Shown piece after piece: positions 52,299 through 60,622 of a DNA stretch of 64,000 nucleotides. How positions within the stretch are numbered: the stretch's first letter is position 1; each line of letters opens with the position of its first letter. The position numbers were made by a program, and so were the translations under genes. Below the pieces are notes generated by a model. The model had not been told where the DNA came from and did not search any database. It worked only from the letters and a program-made list of their open reading frames with translations. Source of the DNA: Psychrobacter sp. Ps6 (GTDB taxonomy: Bacteria > Pseudomonadota > Gammaproteobacteria > Pseudomonadales > Moraxellaceae); assembly GCF_022129235.1 (NCBI RefSeq), contig NZ_JADQAI010000006.1, forward strand, positions 1-64,000, read 5' to 3'.

Positions 52299-53438
52299 CT
52301 AATTGCTGCGTGCAGAGCCTACATACTGCACGCGACTCTCCTTTCGACGGCCCTCTTGATTATCTACCAAGTCGGTAGCCCCATTGACGGTATATTGAGC
52401 AAAATCTTCTGCCAGCCATAGATTGCCTTGATAGACACTTTGCGCATCTAAGCGGATATAGGCCATATTTGGCGTTTCGCTATCTGGATTATCAAAGCTT
52501 TGGTAACGAGCGCTAAAGTGGGTCAAAATGATGTTTTTCAGGCTCATTTTTTGCGCGAAAGTACCCACTATATGCGCGCTGCTATGCATGGGATCAAATT
52601 CAAGGTTACGAGCTTGAATAGCCATCATGACCTCGTGCGTATAAGTGGCCTCATGCACCAACAAATCTGTGTCCATAACTGCTTCACTCAAATACTCTGG
52701 CGTGTCATTGTCCCCTGCTATTACTACTTTTGTCCGCTGCACATCATCATGAACATAGTCTGCTGAACGCAATTGTCGACCATCCTCAGTGATGACATTT
52801 TCACCTTGTTGTAGCTTGCCCCACAGCGCACTTGCTGGGATACCATTTGCTACGAGCTTATCCGTGTTAAGCGTGCGACGGCTGATGGTCTGCGTGATAC
52901 CAAATCCATGAGATGGCACACGGTGCGATAACGGATGAACCTCTATCATCAGCTGATGTTGATTATCCAAGTCGATTTTTACTTTACCTTTATTATTTTC
53001 TTGCGACAACAGGTTCTCTATCGACACAAAGTTGAGGGTAAATGGCAGATATAGTTCAGTATGTAGGATAAAGGCATCAAGCAGCGCCGAGATGGCTTTT
53101 GGTGCAATGAGCGTCAATGGCTCACGGCGACCTGACATCGCGGCACTTGCCAGCAGCCCTGGCAGGCCATAACAGTGGTCGCCATGGACGTGTGTAATAC
53201 AAATAGCTGTCAATTGACGTAAGGAGAGCTTGGTATGCAGTAATTGCTGCTGTGTGCCTTCGCCGCAATCGATGAGCAGCCACGGGCGCGACTTTTTATT
53301 TTGACTGTTACTATGCGGCTGGTTGCCTTTTGATGAACCAGACGCATGAGGATTCAAACACTCGATTGCCAAAGCAGTCACATTGCGCTGCTTAGTTGGC
53401 ACGCCTGCGGAGGTGCCCAAAAAGGTTAACTTTAGCAT
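52299..53438 (-). CDS. rnz: Ribonuclease Z (tRNA 3' processing)
   Basis: Metallo-beta-lactamase-fold endonuclease that trims tRNA 3' ends. 379 residues. LTFLGTSAGVPTKQRNVTAL opens the protein, ICITHVHGDHCYGLPGLL has the HxHxDH zinc motif, VVIAGDNDTPEY the Asp ligand, and LVHEATYTHE plus ILTHFSARYQ the later His ligands. It is longer than E. coli RNase BN/Z (about 305), owing to a short polar insertion near residues 34-49 (SSKGNQPHSNSQNKK), one near 130-155 and a C-terminal tail. A small membrane protein gene lies 32 bases upstream, probably co-transcribed. Confidence 0.92.
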   Translation of the reverse strand: MLKLTFLGTSAGVPTKQRNVTALAIECLNPHASGSSKGNQPHSNSQNKKSRPWLLIDCGEGTQQQLLHTKLSLRQLTAICITHVHGDHCYGLPGLLASAAMSGRREPLTLIAPKAISALLDAFILHTELYLPFTLNFVSIENLLSQENNKGKVKIDLDNQHQLMIEVHPLSHRVPSHGFGITQTISRRTLNTDKLVANGIPASALWGKLQQGENVITEDGRQLRSADYVHDDVQRTKVVIAGDNDTPEYLSEAVMDTDLLVHEATYTHEVMMAIQARNLEFDPMHSSAHIVGTFAQKMSLKNIILTHFSARYQSFDNPDSETPNMAYIRLDAQSVYQGNLWLAEDFAQYTVNGATDLVDNQEGRRKESRVQYVGSARSN

Positions 53439-53470
53439 AGGTCATGTCTTTTATTTATCAGAGGCACGGG

Positions 53471-53743
53471 TTAGGACCGTTGGCATATCATGGTTTTTTG
53501 ACCGTCAACCATTTGTCCACCATTGGCTGTACATTCATTGACCATATTAGATTCATAAGATTTCCAGCCACCATAAAAACTAGCGGCACACAAAATCACA
53601 ACCAGCAGCTTCTGCGACCAAGATTTGATAGATACTTGCTGGTTATCAACCGTTTGCTTGCTTTGCAAGTTCTGATCTAGCGACTGCTTAGTATCTGTGT
53701 CTTTCTTTGTTTTTGCATGATGCGATGTATTCAAGTCTGTCAT
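53471..53743 (-). CDS. Small single-pass membrane protein of unknown function
   Basis: 90 residues. About 40 polar, Lys/Gln/Thr-rich residues at the N-terminus are followed by one membrane helix (KLLVVILCAASFYGGW, about 45-60), then a short tail with two cysteines (ECTANGGQMVDGQKTMIC), which could form a disulfide if periplasmic. No family recognised. It sits 32 bases upstream of rnz on the same strand and after the GST terminator, so it begins the transcript that includes rnz. Coding nature is supported by clean spacing and a plausible protein, not by homology. Confidence 0.6.
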   Translation of the reverse strand: MTDLNTSHHAKTKKDTDTKQSLDQNLQSKQTVDNQQVSIKSWSQKLLVVILCAASFYGGWKSYESNMVNECTANGGQMVDGQKTMICQRS

Positions 53744-53756
53744 TATTTTATCCTAA

Positions 53757-53790
53757 AAAAGGCTTTGCTTATAAATAAACAAAACCTTTT
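53757..53790 (-). terminator. Terminator downstream of the GST gene
   Basis: AAAAGG-C-TTTG pairs with CAAA-A-CCTTTT (one mismatch, 12-base loop). On the minus strand it is followed by TTTTTTAGG. Confidence 0.7.
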
Positions 53791-53844
53791 ATCTAGTATC
53801 ACCTCAAGCATTGAGAGGTGTTTAAGTAATTATACCAATATCTA

Positions 53845-54513
53845 TTAAAACTGCGGTGTTCCGCCCTTTGCCTCAGCACGCTTAAAAGCGGGGCGTTCTT
53901 GACAGCGTTTGAGCCAGTTCAATAGATTGGCGTATTTAGATTGATCCATACCTGCACGCGCATTAGATGCAGCGACTACGATATACATTTGAATATCAGC
54001 GGCACTGAACGTCTCCCCTGCAAACCAGTGACTATGTTGTAGATGCTGCTCCATCAGATTTAAGTTGTTGATAATATTATTGTTGATCATACCATCTTCA
54101 ACTTGTTTACGAATACCTTTGCTGATCGGCTTGATAAGCATAGGCGATCGTTCAACCACTTTACTAAACACCAGACGCATGACTAATTGTGGCATCGCCG
54201 TGGCTTCGGCAAAATGCAACCAAAAAGTATAATCTTCCCACGCCGCTTCATTATCATCAGCTGGCTTAAACTGATGTTCTTTATCATAGTGTCTGAGCAA
54301 ATATTCGATGATGAAACCTGACTCAGCCAAAGCGCGATCACCCACTTCAAGCACCGGCGTGTGTCCCAACGGATGCACTTTTTTTAAGCTCTCAGGTGCA
54401 AGATACGCCTTAGTACGCTCATAGGTCGTCAGCTCATAATCCAGCTCCAACTCTTCTAGTAGCCATAAAATACGAAACGAGCGCGAATTGTTTAAATGAT
54501 GCAGAGTTAACAT
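53845..54513 (-). CDS. Glutathione S-transferase family protein
   Basis: 222 residues, two-domain GST. The thioredoxin-like N-domain has LHHLNNSRSFRILWLLEELE, with Ser/Asn as the likely glutathione-activating residues, and LGHTPVLEVGDRALAESGFI, the cis-Pro and ESxxI glutathione-binding motif. The helical C-domain contains WFAGETFSAADIQMYIVV with the conserved N-capping box. It resembles bacterial beta/theta-like GSTs with unknown substrate. Probably transcribed alone. Confidence 0.9.
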   Translation of the reverse strand: MLTLHHLNNSRSFRILWLLEELELDYELTTYERTKAYLAPESLKKVHPLGHTPVLEVGDRALAESGFIIEYLLRHYDKEHQFKPADDNEAAWEDYTFWLHFAEATAMPQLVMRLVFSKVVERSPMLIKPISKGIRKQVEDGMINNNIINNLNLMEQHLQHSHWFAGETFSAADIQMYIVVAASNARAGMDQSKYANLLNWLKRCQERPAFKRAEAKGGTPQF

Positions 54514-54714
54514 AAACCGTCCTAGTTATATATTGTTTTAAATCAGCCATAATCTCTTAAATATGGCGCCACGTTTTGAATGAAACATGACACCACTGTT
54601 CTTGATAATAGCGTAATTTTTGCCCCTTTGACACTGCAACTTTGTAGAACTGTGACGAAAGTACGGCCTAATAAGTCAGCTCTATATATATCTAGGACCC
54701 GGTAATCGTCAGCA

Positions 54715-55785
54715 TTATTCTACATGTAGTGCTTCAATCTTGCGCGTCATCTTATCTATCTTTTGCTGATATTTTTTGATTTGGCGAAAGCGGTGCGCAA
54801 TTAGCACGCCTTTAATACGGCGGTTTTTGAGACGGCGGCGCGGCGGAAAACTGCCCACTTGTGGCTCATTGTAACCATGTAAGCGGTCTTCACGTTTGCG
54901 CGACAGATAGCCAAGGGCGCTATCGGCAATCATAATCAGCAGTGCGATAAAAATCATGCTATACATTAGCATGGAGCCGCCTTCATGTAAGTTACGATCC
55001 AAAATCGCAATCGAAAATATGAATAAAAATACCGGCTCAAGGTAACACAAAGTCCCAAACAACGAGACAGGCAGCTTTTGACTCGCAACCATCGTCAGTG
55101 ACATCGCAGCAGTACTGATGATGCCCAATAATGGCAATAGATACCAAAGTTTATGGTTGGTGATTGCCACCTCAAAGCCGCCATTCATATATAGCGCAAC
55201 CAGTACGACTGGTAGCAGCAATACAAGATCAGAGATCAAGCCTGTGATAGGCGGTACGGCCAGTTTACGACGCAGCAAGTAGTACGGCGGATAACCCAAG
55301 CACACAAACAAAGTCGCCCAAGAGATCGCACCGTATTCAAAGATATCGTAAGCGATACCAAGACCGGCACATATAATCGCAGCCCACTGTAGCAAGCTCA
55401 TGTCTTCATTATAAAAAAAGCGACCGACCACGATCATAATCATTGGGTATAAGAAGTAACCCAATGTCACCTCAAGCCCCAAGCCATTGACCGGTGCCCA
55501 CATAAACATCCAGATTTGCGCACCCAAAATCGGAGTAGGTAATATAAATAAAAACCATTCTTTTGCGTTTTTTAGTGTTTTTAGATAATCAAAAATATGC
55601 TGCCACTGCTTTAGCACACTCACTAGCAGCACCAGACTAAAAAACATCGTGAGCACACGCCACGAAGCAACTTGCGTACCTGATAACGGTTGCAACAGCA
55701 AACCAAATAGGAACAGCAATGAGTATAAAAAATTTGCAGCCACAGCAGTGATCGTACCCTGCGAGGTTTGGTTAGTAGTCAACAT
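54715..55785 (-). CDS. RarD-like EamA-family permease, copy A
   Basis: Drug/metabolite-transporter superfamily protein, 356 residues, about ten helices and a basic C-terminal tail. WAPVNGLGLEVTLGYFLYPM matches the RarD signature. ATG 55785 was chosen over a GTG 27 bases upstream because AAGG lies eight bases before it and the tandem paralogue starts at exactly the same place with the same length. The paralogue (56023-57093) is similar from end to end. Substrate unknown; RarD was named for chloramphenicol sensitivity in other bacteria, but that is not evidence here. Confidence 0.85.
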   Translation of the reverse strand: MLTTNQTSQGTITAVAANFLYSLLFLFGLLLQPLSGTQVASWRVLTMFFSLVLLVSVLKQWQHIFDYLKTLKNAKEWFLFILPTPILGAQIWMFMWAPVNGLGLEVTLGYFLYPMIMIVVGRFFYNEDMSLLQWAAIICAGLGIAYDIFEYGAISWATLFVCLGYPPYYLLRRKLAVPPITGLISDLVLLLPVVLVALYMNGGFEVAITNHKLWYLLPLLGIISTAAMSLTMVASQKLPVSLFGTLCYLEPVFLFIFSIAILDRNLHEGGSMLMYSMIFIALLIMIADSALGYLSRKREDRLHGYNEPQVGSFPPRRRLKNRRIKGVLIAHRFRQIKKYQQKIDKMTRKIEALHVE

Positions 55786-55835
55786 CACAACAGCCTTTAG
55801 AGATTGGGGCACATCCTTTGCAATTTAAAAAAAAC

Positions 55836-55867
55836 AAAAGCCTCAGACGATAACGTCTGAGGCTTTT
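55836..55867 (-). terminator. Terminator downstream of permease copy B (near-duplicate of the gyrA terminator)
   Basis: Perfect 14-bp stem AAAAGCCTCAGACG / CGTCTGAGGCTTTT around ATAA. On the minus strand a T-run follows. Its 24-base core differs from the terminator at 57153-57184 at only three positions. Confidence 0.92.
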
Positions 55868-56022
55868 GCATATAAGGTCGTCGCGCAATCTAAGATAAAC
55901 GCTTTTAATGTATCTTGCTACATCATGGGCGGCATTATGTCAAAGTCGGCATAGATAAGCAATGCTACTGTGCATCTAGTGTATTAATTTCTACATCCAG
56001 TAAATTTAATGGACATAAGTGC

Positions 56023-57093
56023 TTATTTTGCATCAAGTTGTTCGAGTTTTTGCTGTATCTTATCCATCTTTTTTTGATAACGACGAATTTTGCGAAAGCG
56101 ATGCGCTTTTAGTACACCATCGATACGCTGATTGATAAAATGACGACGCGGCGGAAAGCCGCCAATCTGAAGCTCTCTATATCCATGCAAGCGGTCATTA
56201 CGCTGACGAACGAGATAGCCTATCGCACTATCGATTATCATGACCACTAGAGCAAGTGTAATCATACCGTACATAAAGAGCGAGCCACCTTCATCAAGAC
56301 TTTGACTCAGAACGGTAATGGACAACACAAATAACAGCAGCGGCTCTATGTAACTCAGCGCCCCAAATAACGACACTGGCAACTTGCTACTCGCAATCAT
56401 CGTCAGCGACATTGCTAGTGCACTAAATGCACCCAGCAATGGCAGTAGGTACCAAAACTTCATATTTTGTGCCGCCACACTAAAACCACCAGTGAGATAA
56501 AGCATGATCAGTACCACTGGCGTCAGCAATGTCAAATCAAACAACAAGCCAGTAATGGGCGGTACAGCAAGTGTGCGGCGCAATAGATAATACGGCGGAT
56601 AGCCCAAACATACAAATAGCGTCACCCAAGATACCGAACCATATTGAAAAATGTCGTAGCCAATACCTAGCGCTGCCATTATCGCTGCCGCATACTGCAA
56701 GACACTCATATCCTCACGATAAAAAAACCGACCAAGCACAATCATCACAAGTGGCAATAAAAAATAGCCCAAGGTGACATCCAGTCCAAATCCATTCACA
56801 GGTGCCCACATAAACAACCAAATCTGGCCGCCTAAGATCGGTGCAGGCAATATAAATATCAGCCATTCTTTCAAGGTTTTAAGTGTCTTTATATAATCAA
56901 AGACATGCTGCCATTGTTTGGTCAAACTGAGCAAGATGACCAAGCTTAACAACATCATCAGCACTCGCCATGAGGCTACCTGTGTCCCCGTTAAGGGCAG
57001 CATAAATAGCCCAAACAAAAACATCATCGAGAATAAAAAGCTCGACGATACCGCTGCGACAGTTCCCTGAAAAGTTTGATTGGTCGTAAGCAT
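56023..57093 (-). CDS. RarD-like EamA-family permease, copy B
   Basis: 356 residues, same length and topology as copy A directly downstream. Motif WAPVNGFGLDVTLGYFLLPL; the SSKLPVSLFGALSYIEPLLL segment corresponds to the second EamA half. The ATG has AAGG eight bases upstream, as in copy A. Lies between the gyrA terminator and the near-identical terminator that separates it from copy A, so each copy is probably its own unit. Function unknown beyond membrane transport. Confidence 0.85.
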   Translation of the reverse strand: MLTTNQTFQGTVAAVSSSFLFSMMFLFGLFMLPLTGTQVASWRVLMMLLSLVILLSLTKQWQHVFDYIKTLKTLKEWLIFILPAPILGGQIWLFMWAPVNGFGLDVTLGYFLLPLVMIVLGRFFYREDMSVLQYAAAIMAALGIGYDIFQYGSVSWVTLFVCLGYPPYYLLRRTLAVPPITGLLFDLTLLTPVVLIMLYLTGGFSVAAQNMKFWYLLPLLGAFSALAMSLTMIASSKLPVSLFGALSYIEPLLLFVLSITVLSQSLDEGGSLFMYGMITLALVVMIIDSAIGYLVRQRNDRLHGYRELQIGGFPPRRHFINQRIDGVLKAHRFRKIRRYQKKMDKIQQKLEQLDAK

Positions 57094-57152
57094 AACAACA
57101 GCCTTAAAAGTAAAACCCTGTGTACATTATTAAGAAAAAGTGAATGAAAAAT

Positions 57153-57184
57153 AAAAGCCTCCAACGATAACGTCAGAGGCTTTT
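57153..57184 (-). terminator. Terminator of gyrA
   Basis: AAAAGCCTC pairs with GAGGCTTTT; ACG/CGT re-pair inside around ATAA, with a two-base internal mismatch on each side. A T-rich tract follows on the minus strand. It lies 51 bases after the gyrA stop. Confidence 0.88.
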
Positions 57185-57234
57185 TTCTAGAACAATGATC
57201 AGAAACTAGACTGAAAAGCTAACTACCAAGACTA

Positions 57235-60042
57235 TTACTCGTCATCATCTACTGCATCATTGTCCAATGTGTAATCGTTGGCAATATCGATAACGTCGTT
57301 GGCATCGCTCAAAGCGGTATTGTCAGTTGCGGCATCGATATCTATCTGCTCTTGGCCGTCTACGGAGAAAGTCCCATCTTCTTTCATCGCATCGACTAAT
57401 TCATCATCGCCCTCTTCGTGCTCAACACGCGCCATAGCGACTAATTTTTCATCTTTTGACAGACGAATGAGCGTGACACCCTGTGTATTACGACCAGAGC
57501 TAGCGACATGCTCAACTGGCGTACGTACTAGCGTTCCTTTGTCAGAGATTAAAATAATATCATCAGTAGCGTCAACCTTGGTCGCTCGTACCAATGCGCC
57601 ATTACGCTCACTGGTCTTGATAGCAATTACACCGCCACCACCACGATTTTGCGTATTGAACTCTTCGATAAGGGTACGCTTACCAAAGCCGTTTTCACAA
57701 GCAATTAAGATTTCATGTACATCATCTTCGATAACGACCAATGATTTGATAAATTCATCAGCAGCCAGACGCATACCGCGAACACCTTTCGCTGTACGGC
57801 CCATCGCACGAGCATCATTCTCATCAAAACGAATGGCTTTACCACTTGAAGCAAATAGCATCACTTCTTGGCTACCATTAGTAATACGAGCGCTGACCAA
57901 TTTATCACCATCTTCTAGACCAACCGCGATCAAGCCGTTCGAGCGAATATTGGCAAACTGCTTAAGTTCTACCCGCTTTACTGTACCATTAGCCGTGGCA
58001 AAGAATACGAAAGGTGGCTCTGCTTGATTGCTATCTTCTACCGAATCGTCATCATTGCTATGCGCTGATACCTCACCTACTACTGATGTATCTTCTACAA
58101 TTTTTGGAATTGGCAATATCGTCGTCACTGTCTCATCGCTATTTAAACCAATCAAATTCACCAATGGACGGCCACGAGCACCGCGACTGGCAATCGGCAC
58201 TTCAAAGCCACGTAAGCTAAAGACACGCCCGCTGTCAGTGAAACACAAAACAGTCGAATGCGTTGATGTCACGACTAAATGGTCAATCACATCATCTTCT
58301 TTCATCGCCGTTGCAGACTTACCTTTGCCGCCACGTTTTTGTGCGACGTAGTCATCAATTGGCTGAGTTTTTGCGTAACCCGTACGTGAGACGGTCATCA
58401 CAACGGTTTGCTCAGGAATCAGGTCTTCACGACTAAAATCCATACGTGAGTCGATGATGTCGGTACGGCGCTCATCACCAAAGTTATCACGAATCTCAAT
58501 CATCTCATTAGAGATAATGCTCATGAGCTTATCAAAATCACCAAGAATAGACTCTAAATGAGTGATTTCGCGTAGTAAGTCTTGATATTCTTCAGTCAAT
58601 TTATCCTGCTCAAGGCCCGTTAGGCGATGCAATTGCATATCTAAAATCGCATTGACCTGCTCAAGGGATAAACGATAGCGCTCTTGTCCTTCAATCAGAC
58701 CAAACGGCGCTTTAGGATCTTCACCTTCGATAAATTCAGGACGTACAGACTGACTGCCAGCAGCGGTCAACATCGCAACGACACTACCTGAACCCCACGT
58801 ATTATTCAATAAACTTTCGCGTGCGAGTCCACGGTTTGCAGACGCTTTAATCGTCGCAATAATTTCATCGATATTGGCTAGTGCGACCGTTAGACCTTCG
58901 AGCAAATGACCACGAACACGGGCTTTGTTCAATTCATAAATCGTACGGCGTGTCACCACTTCTTGACGATGACGGACAAATGCAGCGATAAGCTGACGCA
59001 AGGTCAATAGCTTTGGCTGACCATTATCGAGCGCCACCATGTTGATACTAAAGCTAGACTCAAGCGGCGTTTGCAAGAACAAGTTATTGACGATAACTTC
59101 AGCCGTCTCACCGCGACGTAAGTCAATAGCGATACGCATACCGTCTTTATCAGACTCATCACGGATTTCGCTAATGCCTTCTATTTTTTTATCACGGACA
59201 AGCTCTGCGATACGCTCGATGAGTTTGGCTTTATTGGCCTGATAAGGCACTTCGGTAAATACGATACGCTCGCGGTCACGGTTGACGCCAGTATTACTCA
59301 TCGGCTCGATATGATAGCGACCACGAATATGCAGACGACCTTTACCCGTACGATAAGCATCTAAAATGCCAGCGCGACCATAGATAATACCGCCGGTTGG
59401 AAAATCAGGGCCTGAGATGTGTGACATCAGCTCTTCAGCTGAGACTTGTGGATTTTCAGCATAGGCCAAACACGCATTAATCACTTCGGTCAGATTATGC
59501 GGTGCCATATTGGTCGCCATACCAACAGCGATACCCGTCGCGCCATTGACCAATAAGTTAGGAATACGCGCTGGCATCACGCTTGGCATGCGCTCAGAGC
59601 CGTCGTAGTTGTCTTCCCAATCGACTGTGTCTTTGTCCAAATCAGCCAGCATCTGGTGGGTCAGTTTGGTCATACGTACTTCGGTATAACGCATCGCTGC
59701 CGGAGGATCATCATCGATCGAGCCAAAGTTACCTTGACCATCAACCATTGGATAACGCAAGCTAAAATCCTGCGCCATACGGACGATGGCGTCATAGACG
59801 GCAATATCGCCATGTGGATGGTACTTACCGATCACATCACCGACCACACGGGCTGATTTTTTGTACGGTTTATTATAATCGTTTGATAGCACGTGCATGG
59901 CATACATCACGCGGCGGTGTACAGGTTTGAACCCATCACGCACATCAGGCAGCGCACGCGAGACGATCACGCTCATCGCATAATCCAAATACGACTGCTT
60001 TAGTTCATCTACGATGCCAATAGGACTGACCGATTCGCTCAT
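57235..60042 (-). CDS. gyrA: DNA gyrase subunit A
   Basis: Type II topoisomerase subunit that breaks and rejoins DNA. 935 residues from ATG 60042 (MSESVSPIG), chosen for AAGGAG seven bases upstream; the frame runs 19 codons further. The active-site Tyr is in [11 protein letters not shown] (about 119). The C-terminal wrapping domain carries the GyrA-box ([13 protein letters not shown]) and ends in an Asp/Glu-rich tail of about 55 residues. The quinolone-resistance region reads [20 protein letters not shown], with Ile at residue 80 where E. coli has Ser83. An acidic insertion ([17 protein letters not shown]) lies within the C-terminal propeller. Otherwise typical. Confidence 0.97.
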
Positions 60043-60622
60043 ATACACTCCTTCACTCACATTTTTTTCTAACGTTGACACATCGCTTATAGCACCCATA
60101 GATCATATAAAAATACTGCCACATAAATGGGCAGTCATGATCAAAATACATACCATAAAAAAACACTGCTACACGTGCAAAACAATAGGAAAATAGCGAT
60201 AGTTTTAATGTTTAATAAAAGAAGCTATTTTAGCACAAATTTGCTGATTTAGGGGGTTCTGGCTGCCATTAAAATCAAGCCAAGCGGTTCATTCACAGTG
60301 ATATTTTGAATTATTGACACACACTAAAATAATTTTAGTAGCAGGTTTTTTTTGATTAACTGATTTTGCTATTTTTACAGACGAATTTACCATCTGCAGA
60401 GCAATGAGATACTCTGCCCACCTTACCTGAACAGAACCTACCAATTGTTCTAACATGAGCTAATGGTTTTCATAACCGTGCTATTTTCATGATAAGTATA
60501 TTACGGTTTAAATCATGTTAATGAGGCTATTTTTTTAGTGACGCTGGACAAAAAAATCCTAAGCGTTACACTAACTCATCTTTTATAGAACTCAAATAAC
60601 GACCTAACAGGCTACTTTTATT
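60043..60622. other. Long divergent intergenic region between gyrA and the small membrane protein gene
   Basis: About 580 bases without a credible gene. It includes the gyrA leader and promoter region (minus) and the promoter of the downstream pair (plus). TTGACA at 60314-60319 is a perfect -35 hexamer, but no good -10 follows at the right distance; instead a palindrome lies there (60323-60339, listed separately). No RNA gene recognised. Confidence 0.45.
60323..60339. promoter_or_regulatory. Palindrome ACTAAAAT-A-ATTTTAGT next to a TTGACA hexamer, candidate operator
   Basis: Perfect 8-bp arms around a central A (60323-60339), beginning three bases after TTGACA (60314-60319). Placement just inside a promoter-like element suggests a repressor site; the regulator and the promoter direction are unknown. 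Confidence 0.4.

What the first reader, a model, noticed from the sequence alone, without database searches (positions are those of the whole stretch)
54715..57184. Tandem permease duplication that apparently copied the gyrA terminator with it
Two RarD-like genes of exactly 356 codons each lie in tandem. Each is preceded by a hairpin whose 24-base core differs from the other at only three positions. The right-hand hairpin is the gyrA terminator; the left-hand one separates copy B from copy A. The duplicated unit therefore seems to be terminator + leader + permease. The left copy of the hairpin is perfect while the right one has mismatches, so the gyrA-side copy has drifted or the other has improved.
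Basis: seen in the sequence. Interest (0 to 1): 0.5.

Follow-up and report, generated by a model that had tools for sequence, protein, structure and literature searches.

The report
Tandem transporter genes with copied terminator
A transporter gene behind gyrA was duplicated in tandem in a group of Psychrobacter bacteria together with the terminator hairpin in front of it; this is an ordinary kind of gene duplication with an unusually clear record, including a promoter-like element upstream of the hairpin in one copy only.

Summary
Two RarD-like permease genes of 356 codons (68% identical proteins) lie in tandem behind gyrA. Each has a hairpin in front; the 32-base hairpins differ at 3 positions, and no other place with the same arm pattern shares their core. 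Of 105 Psychrobacter genomes 61 have the tandem, 28 one permease, 16 none. Singles, including early-branching ones, carry such a hairpin before the permease, so the duplicated unit held hairpin, ribosome-site leader and permease. Deletion products agree: one genome seems to have lost copy A by crossing-over at the hairpins; six (about three events) lost copy B by crossing-over near the genes' 3' ends.

Two corrections. The right hairpin's 'mismatches' are G-U wobbles: as RNA in the gyrA direction 49 of 50 A-type cores are fully paired. And a conserved promoter-like element (TTGCTT-17-CATAAT) precedes the hairpin in 51 of 51 B copies, 0 of 51 A copies and three early-branching singles. The hairpin thus lies in the permease's 5' leader as well as behind gyrA. 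Read-through or attenuated expression is inferred, not shown. Evolutionarily ordinary; the promoter-terminator-permease layout is the part worth testing.

The parts
57235..60099 (-). gyrA
   Evidence: ORF of 954 aa; its C-terminal part was found upstream of the permease in 79 of 81 rows, the other two (L084, L086) being cut by contig ends
57153..57184 (-). hairpin T: behind gyrA and in the leader of copy A; 14 pairs, 2 of them G-U, loop UUAU, then AUUUUU
   Evidence: -20.2 kcal/mol on the gene strand, -14.6 on the other
57095..57105 (-). AAGGCTGTTGT, end of the leader of copy A with its likely ribosome-binding site
   Evidence: AAGGCTGTTGTNATG exactly twice in the genome
56023..57093 (-). copy A, RarD-like EamA/DMT permease, 356 aa
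   Evidence: TIGR00688 170.3 bits, cut-off 130.15
55934..55962 (-). promoter-like element P: TTGCTT - 17 nt - CATAAT, between copy A and hairpin T'
   Evidence: in 51 of 51 B copies, 0 of 51 A copies, 3 of 29 singles; GACTTTGACATAAT occurs once in the genome without mismatch and at ten more places with one
55834..55869 (-). hairpin T': perfect 16-pair stem, loop UUAU, followed by a T run; between P and copy B
   Evidence: -27.8 kcal/mol
55786..55833 (-). leader of copy B between hairpin and start codon, conserved across B copies; ends in AAGGCTGTTGTG (55786-55797)
   Evidence: 48 of 51 B copies compared: mean pairwise identity 0.835, length 50-57 nt from the hairpin end as the script set it
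54715..55785 (-). copy B, RarD-like EamA/DMT permease, 356 aa
   Evidence: TIGR00688 172.9 bits; EamA 37.2 bits, cut-off 28.2
53845..54513 (-). glutathione S-transferase-like gene (name from recall, no family search run on it); next gene downstream in relatives with and without the permease

Best explanation
A single ancestral locus, gyrA - P - hairpin - permease - GST-like gene, was duplicated in tandem once inside Psychrobacter; each copy received the hairpin and the ribosome-site leader, and copy A later lost P, so that its hairpin now closely follows gyrA. Supported by comparison: homology of hairpins, leader ends and genes, the order of events in outline, and later losses with junctions inside the repeated stretches. 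Inferred: the hairpin works as an intrinsic terminator that ends gyrA transcripts and, because it also lies between upstream transcription and the permease start codons, keeps both permeases at a low read-through level, copy A from gyrA and copy B from P. RarD-like proteins are EamA-type carriers, probably exporters, of unknown substrate (recalled).
For: One duplication: A clade and B clade separate in the tree, with nine single-copy rows outside both. Hairpin cores found in 50 of 51 A copies, 51 of 51 B copies and 27 of 29 singles. The leader string next to the start codon is exact at these two genes alone. P lies upstream of the hairpin in 51 of 51 B copies, 0 of 51 A copies and the early-branching singles L102, L106 and L107. 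Deletion products: L104 joins the gyrA-side half of hairpin T to the B leader (by eye); L062, L080, L081 and L083 are A-type with a B-type 3' end; L076 and L079 switch to B in the last codons (by eye). L123 lacks the permease but keeps the hairpin and a relic of the leader behind gyrA. RNA direction: of 500 A-type core pairs 428 are Watson-Crick, 71 G-U and 1 A-C. The hairpin stays in the predicted fold of 49 of 51 B leaders. Both copies are under purifying selection, median dN/dS 0.060 (51 A) and 0.045 (48 B rows that entered). Read-through: in L064, L081, L083 and L085 only 25-31 nt separate the stem from the start codon (L080 looks alike).
Against: No transcript data. The sigma-70 scan did not report P (TTGCTT has 3 of 6 consensus bases) and found promoter-like sites no more often than in shuffles; P rests on conservation alone, and 10 other places in the genome match its 14-base core with one mismatch, against 3 for the reversed pattern. 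The window's leaders are alike only over 11-15 nt. A promoter inside gyrA or one of another type could serve copy A. Three nested singles (L089, L092, L093) show no hybrid 3' end. An identical hairpin pair beside unrelated genes in the same genome shows that hairpin likeness alone does not prove gene duplication. The rows are related and partly near-identical, so counts are not independent events.
Confidence: 0.8

Rival explanations
1. The hairpins are independent terminators of the same generic type and the likeness is convergence or gene conversion; only the permease genes were duplicated.
For: 84 places in the genome have the arms AAAAGCC...GGCTTTT, and one other pair is identical without gene duplication.
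Against: No other place with the tighter arm pattern has this core; the leader string is shared and otherwise absent without mismatch; 27 of 29 single-copy rows have a like core before the permease; L104 seems to have recombined at the hairpins.
Confidence: 0.05
2. P plus T' is a small RNA gene (about 100 nt) that happens to lie in front of copy B; the permease is expressed by leakage only.
For: Conserved promoter-like element followed by a strong terminator-like hairpin with a T run; weak sub-threshold Spot_42 match over 55832-55910 (23.3 bits, gathering score 80).
Against: The stretch between P and T' is less conserved (mean pairwise identity 0.686) than P (0.919) and T' (0.877), varies in length and holds long inserts in L059, L075 and L078; its own consensus structure is only -1.1 kcal/mol, though 1 of 100 column shuffles was as low.
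Confidence: 0.12
3. T' is a regulated attenuator of copy B: a signal decides whether transcripts from P pass the terminator.
For: Order promoter-like element - short leader - strong hairpin - start codon in 51 of 51 B copies and in three early singles; the hairpin-to-start leader of B is conserved; in the predicted folds of the window and L042 the flanks pair around the hairpin, and in L061 a competing pairing replaces it.
Against: A competing fold in which the hairpin is gone appears in 1 of 51 B leaders (L061; L118 keeps 7 pairs); the consensus fold shows no antiterminator; no Rfam family at its gathering score; no conserved leader peptide seen by eye; large inserts tolerated in 3 B copies.
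Confidence: 0.25

Closest known systems
Tandem gene duplication with divergence and later loss by unequal crossing-over (recalled)
   Same: Repeat of leader and gene, divergence under purifying selection, deletions with junctions inside the repeated stretches
   Different: The repeated stretch includes a hairpin that also ends the neighbour gene, and one copy lost the upstream promoter-like element
RarD, TIGR00688, EamA / drug-metabolite transporter superfamily
   Same: Both copies exceed the curated cut-off of TIGR00688
   Different: About 95 residues beyond the model's match at the C-terminus, rich in basic residues; far below the cut-off of NF011959 (101-110 of 540 bits); the genome's next RarD-like protein at C1:556639 is 38% identical to B
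Transcription attenuators in 5' leaders (recalled: terminator between promoter and start codon)
   Same: Order promoter-like element, terminator-like hairpin, start codon at copy B
   Different: No conserved antiterminator, leader peptide or known RNA family found

Membership tests
RarD family (TIGR00688) | whole-protein score above the curated cut-off | tested here: met
   170.3 and 172.9 bits, cut-off 130.15
RarD of the PRK15430 type (NF011959) | score above the curated cut-off | tested here: not met
   101.4 and 110.4 bits, cut-off 540
EamA (PF00892) | score above the gathering cut-off of 28.2 | tested here: inconclusive
   A 27.9 bits (just under), B 37.2 bits (over)
Intrinsic terminator | G+C-rich stem followed closely by a T run on the transcribed strand | tested here: met
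Intrinsic terminator | transcripts end there | not testable with these tools
   no transcript data
Tandem duplication unit | collinear homology across hairpin, leader and gene | tested here: met
   hairpin and gene throughout, leader only in its last 11-15 nt
Tandem duplication unit | relatives with a single copy in the same place | tested here: met
   28 of 105 genomes; in two of them (L101, L103) a second GST-like gene lies between gyrA and the permease
Attenuator | promoter upstream of the terminator, gene downstream | tested here: inconclusive
   P conserved in 51 of 51 B copies but weak against the sigma-70 consensus; start site unmapped
Attenuator | alternative antiterminator structure or leader peptide kept across relatives | tested here: not met
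   consensus fold shows the hairpin and only short weak helices besides; hairpin kept in 49 of 51 predicted folds; no conserved reading frame seen by eye

The most novel reading that the evidence does not exclude
The hairpin is primarily the permease's own attenuator, used at the same time as the gyrA terminator: in this genus a permease family has been kept behind a terminator that also ends gyrA, so that copy A reports read-through from gyrA (hence possibly DNA supercoiling) while copy B answers to its own promoter through a second terminator. The duplication then split one doubly driven gene into two separately driven ones.
Probability: 0.2. Interest if true: 0.55.

Novelty: new member of a known kind. 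Interest (0 to 1): 0.3.

Why it matters
It is a well-resolved natural record of how a bacterial tandem duplication carries regulatory sequence with it, how one copy loses its promoter-like element, and how the repeats then serve as sites of loss. If the permeases are really expressed only through terminators, it would be a simple case for testing how duplicated genes divide their inputs.

Tried and rejected
Rfam search of 53400-57600: 4 matches with E up to 1, none at its family's gathering score. Consensus promoter and terminator scan: 10 promoter-like sites, 10.0 expected from shuffles; P is not among them. Conserved structure between P and the start codon: besides the hairpin, a helix of a few pairs between P and T' (-1.1 kcal/mol, as low in 1 of 100 column shuffles) and one between T' and ATG (-1.1, 17 of 100); not pursued. 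A conserved leader peptide or N-terminal extension in the B leader: rejected by eye, since the frame from the in-frame GTG is broken or gone in L072, L077, L087 and L088. Hairpin as a dispersed repeat or uptake signal: rejected, since of 4 places with the tight arm pattern only 2 have the core; this core with other arms was not searched. Relic of a first permease in L101 between gyrA and the first GST-like gene: none clear (best nucleotide match E 0.004 over 26 bases, which lies in the permease's 3' flank; the two hairpins match at E 0.057). Solved structures: no match to copy B at E 0.01.

Literature: four searches of the held library (one search found no paper); listings and starts of abstracts were seen. 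Of one paper, PMC12953519, I saw seven passages: it lists rarD_1, rarD_2 and rarD_3 in a Psychrobacter genome among resistance-associated genes and has no word beginning with 'duplicat' in its main text. In what I saw, nothing treats this locus.

Rows left out: the tree used 91 of 128 complete permease rows (near-identical loci dropped) and 5 of 8 outgroup rows tried, those without a stop. Leader alignment: 32 rows (29 of 51 B copies and 3 singles), 19 near-identical loci and 3 with long inserts left out. Interval conservation: 48 of 51 B copies. dN/dS: 51 of 51 A and 48 of 51 B copies, pairs with dS between 0.1 and 1.5. Nine near-identical tandem genomes listed were not fetched. Part of the printed output was cut; one search gives the gene places of all 81 rows.

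Full report
OBSERVATION. On the minus strand the order is gyrA (57235-60099), hairpin T (57153-57184), permease A (56023-57093), promoter-like element P (55934-55962), hairpin T' (stem 55834-55869), permease B (54715-55785), GST-like gene (53845-54513). Both permeases have 356 residues from ATG; the ORF lister starts B at GTG 55812 with 365. They are 68% identical, with 725 of 1068 coding bases identical and synonymous sites saturated in the window. Both belong to RarD by TIGR00688 (170.3 and 172.9 bits, cut-off 130.15), not to the narrower NF011959; EamA scores are 27.9 (A, just under the cut-off of 28.2) and 37.2 (B).

IS THE HAIRPIN LIKENESS REAL. The outer arms AAAAGCC...GGCTTTT are a generic terminator arm here: 84 places in the genome. 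The tighter pattern AAAGCCTC...GAGGCTTT has 4 places, and only these two share the core. The likeness of T and T' (score 12 of 18 inner bases) is reached by 1 of 1225 pairs among 50 of the 82 other hairpins, those that one search printed. That one pair is identical and lies 926 bp apart on contig 6, behind two unrelated convergent genes, so hairpin likeness alone would not be proof. Next to the start codons the string AAGGCTGTTGTNATG occurs exactly twice in the genome, at A and B; two more places have one mismatch, and the reversed control has none.

RELATIVES. Of 105 genomes of the genus, the window's own included, I count 61 with the tandem, 28 with one permease and 16 without. The 61 are 51 loci read here, the window included, one genome whose two copies lie on two contigs (L085 and L086), and nine near-identical genomes seen only in the list. 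Of the 16, one (G080, L133) is cut before the end of gyrA. In a sample of 249 genomes of the family, three other genera had matches at E 1e-40 or better, the best 4.6e-63, far weaker than within the genus; whether those lie beside gyrA was not checked.

SINGLE-COPY GENOMES HAVE THE HAIRPIN. The core was found before 50 of 51 A copies (L084 is cut by a contig end), 51 of 51 B copies and 27 of 29 singles; L112 and L113, very divergent, fell under the script's cut-off but have a hairpin at that place. The 29 include L085, which is an assembly break. In L123 (G005) the permease is gone, but hairpin and leader relic remain behind gyrA. In the other 14 permease-free loci that reach that far, gyrA is followed by other sequence and then the GST-like gene.

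TREE. In a quick maximum-likelihood tree of 91 permease rows and 5 outgroup rows, 30 B rows and the single L104 form one clade (support 100), and 33 A rows with 18 single-copy rows another (97). Nine singles (L102, L105-L108, L110-L113) lie outside both. One duplication inside the genus fits. Many inner branches are weak, and the singles at the base of the A side (L094, L095, L097-L101, L103, L109) could be early losses of B or early offshoots.

LOSSES MARK THE UNIT. Four of the nine are A-type with a B-type 3' end in the last two 15-codon windows (L062, L080, L081, L083), and two switch to B in the last codons (L076, L079, by eye). By the tree these six are about three events. L089, L092 and L093 show no such switch. 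Copy B is broken in L040, L041, L096 and L117, and lacks its first 18 codons in L118; among the 51 tandem loci no A copy is broken. L117 and L118 are drafts (titles JCM 18903 and JCM 18901) in which sequencing errors are possible. L087 and L090 show exchanged states at the last two diagnostic sites, as gene conversion would give.

THE PROMOTER-LIKE ELEMENT. Between copy A and T' lies TTGCTT-17-CATAAT with the spacer end TGACTTTGA. It is within one mismatch of TGACTTTGACATAAT in 51 of 51 B copies, and the first hexamer is TTGCTT in 48 of 51. No A copy (0 of 51) has it within 3 mismatches. Among the singles it is found before the hairpin in L102, L106 and L107, which branch early; two further script hits, L101 and L103, are the hairpin itself. 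So the ancestral order was probably gyrA - P - hairpin - permease; B kept it and A lost P. In the window the A hairpin follows gyrA after 50 nt. Conservation along the B leader (48 of 51 copies) is 0.557 from A stop to P, 0.919 in P, 0.686 from P to T', 0.877 in T' and 0.835 from T' to ATG. P does not pass the consensus scan, so it rests on conservation. In the window's genome its 14-base core has no other exact match, ten with one mismatch, and the reversed control has three.

HAIRPIN QUALITY. On the gene strand T folds at -20.2 and T' at -27.8 kcal/mol; on the other strand T has only -14.6 and T' -25.9. Of 500 pairs in 50 A-type cores, 428 are Watson-Crick, 71 G-U and 1 A-C; 49 of 50 cores are fully paired. 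All 50 carry one T-G wobble, so much of the 71 is one inherited change. B-type cores have 481 Watson-Crick, 16 G-U, 2 A-C and 11 other of 510 pairs; 39 of 51 are fully paired. At one position B has A-T in 26 and C-G in 15 copies, a two-sided change, and C-T or T-T in 10. The excess of G-U over A-C says that the A hairpin is kept as RNA made in the gyrA direction.

HOW IT MOST LIKELY WORKS. Supported: positions, homology, conservation. Inferred: T ends gyrA transcripts; A is reached by read-through from gyrA, since in four genomes only 25-31 nt separate stem and start codon (L064, L081, L083, L085, and L080 by its sequence), too little for a promoter clear of the hairpin; B is transcribed from P through T'. 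Both proteins are maintained (median dN/dS 0.060 for 51 A and 0.045 for 48 B copies). Folded with its flanks the B hairpin is kept in 49 of 51 leaders; L061 prefers a competing pairing and L118 keeps 7 pairs. I found no antiterminator, leader peptide or known RNA family shared across relatives, so a regulated attenuator is possible but not supported beyond the layout.

VERDICT. A real tandem duplication that included the hairpin. The general process is well known (recalled); this is a clear new case, with a correction about the hairpin's state and an added promoter-like element. Four literature searches (listings and abstract starts) and passages of one paper (PMC12953519) showed nothing on this locus beyond three rarD entries in a gene list of another Psychrobacter.

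Noticed in passing
own genome C6:312193-312221 and 313119-313147 (L232:1693-1725 and 2619-2651): Two identical 33-nt terminator hairpins flank about 0.9 kb between two convergent unrelated genes. In G048 and G090 the matches of the two gene ends overlap on one hairpin-sized stretch, so the window's genome seems to hold an insert at a shared terminator with the hairpin as direct repeat; the insert has an 82-aa ORF.
   Followed up: partly
L101 and L103 (gyrA end to permease): A second GST-like gene (65% identical to the other in L101) lies between gyrA and the permease, with a similar hairpin behind gyrA and another before the permease: perhaps a separate duplication of hairpin + permease + GST with loss of one permease.
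   Followed up: partly
window 54715-55785 and 56023-57093, last 95 or so codons: Both permeases run about 95 residues past the match to the RarD model (which ends at residue 259-261); the tail is rich in basic residues. Function unknown.
   Followed up: no
L059, L075, L078, between P and T': Long inserts between P and T' in these B leaders, plus one between T' and ATG in L078; part of the L078 insert resembles, reversed, a stretch behind gyrA in L123 (by eye).
   Followed up: no
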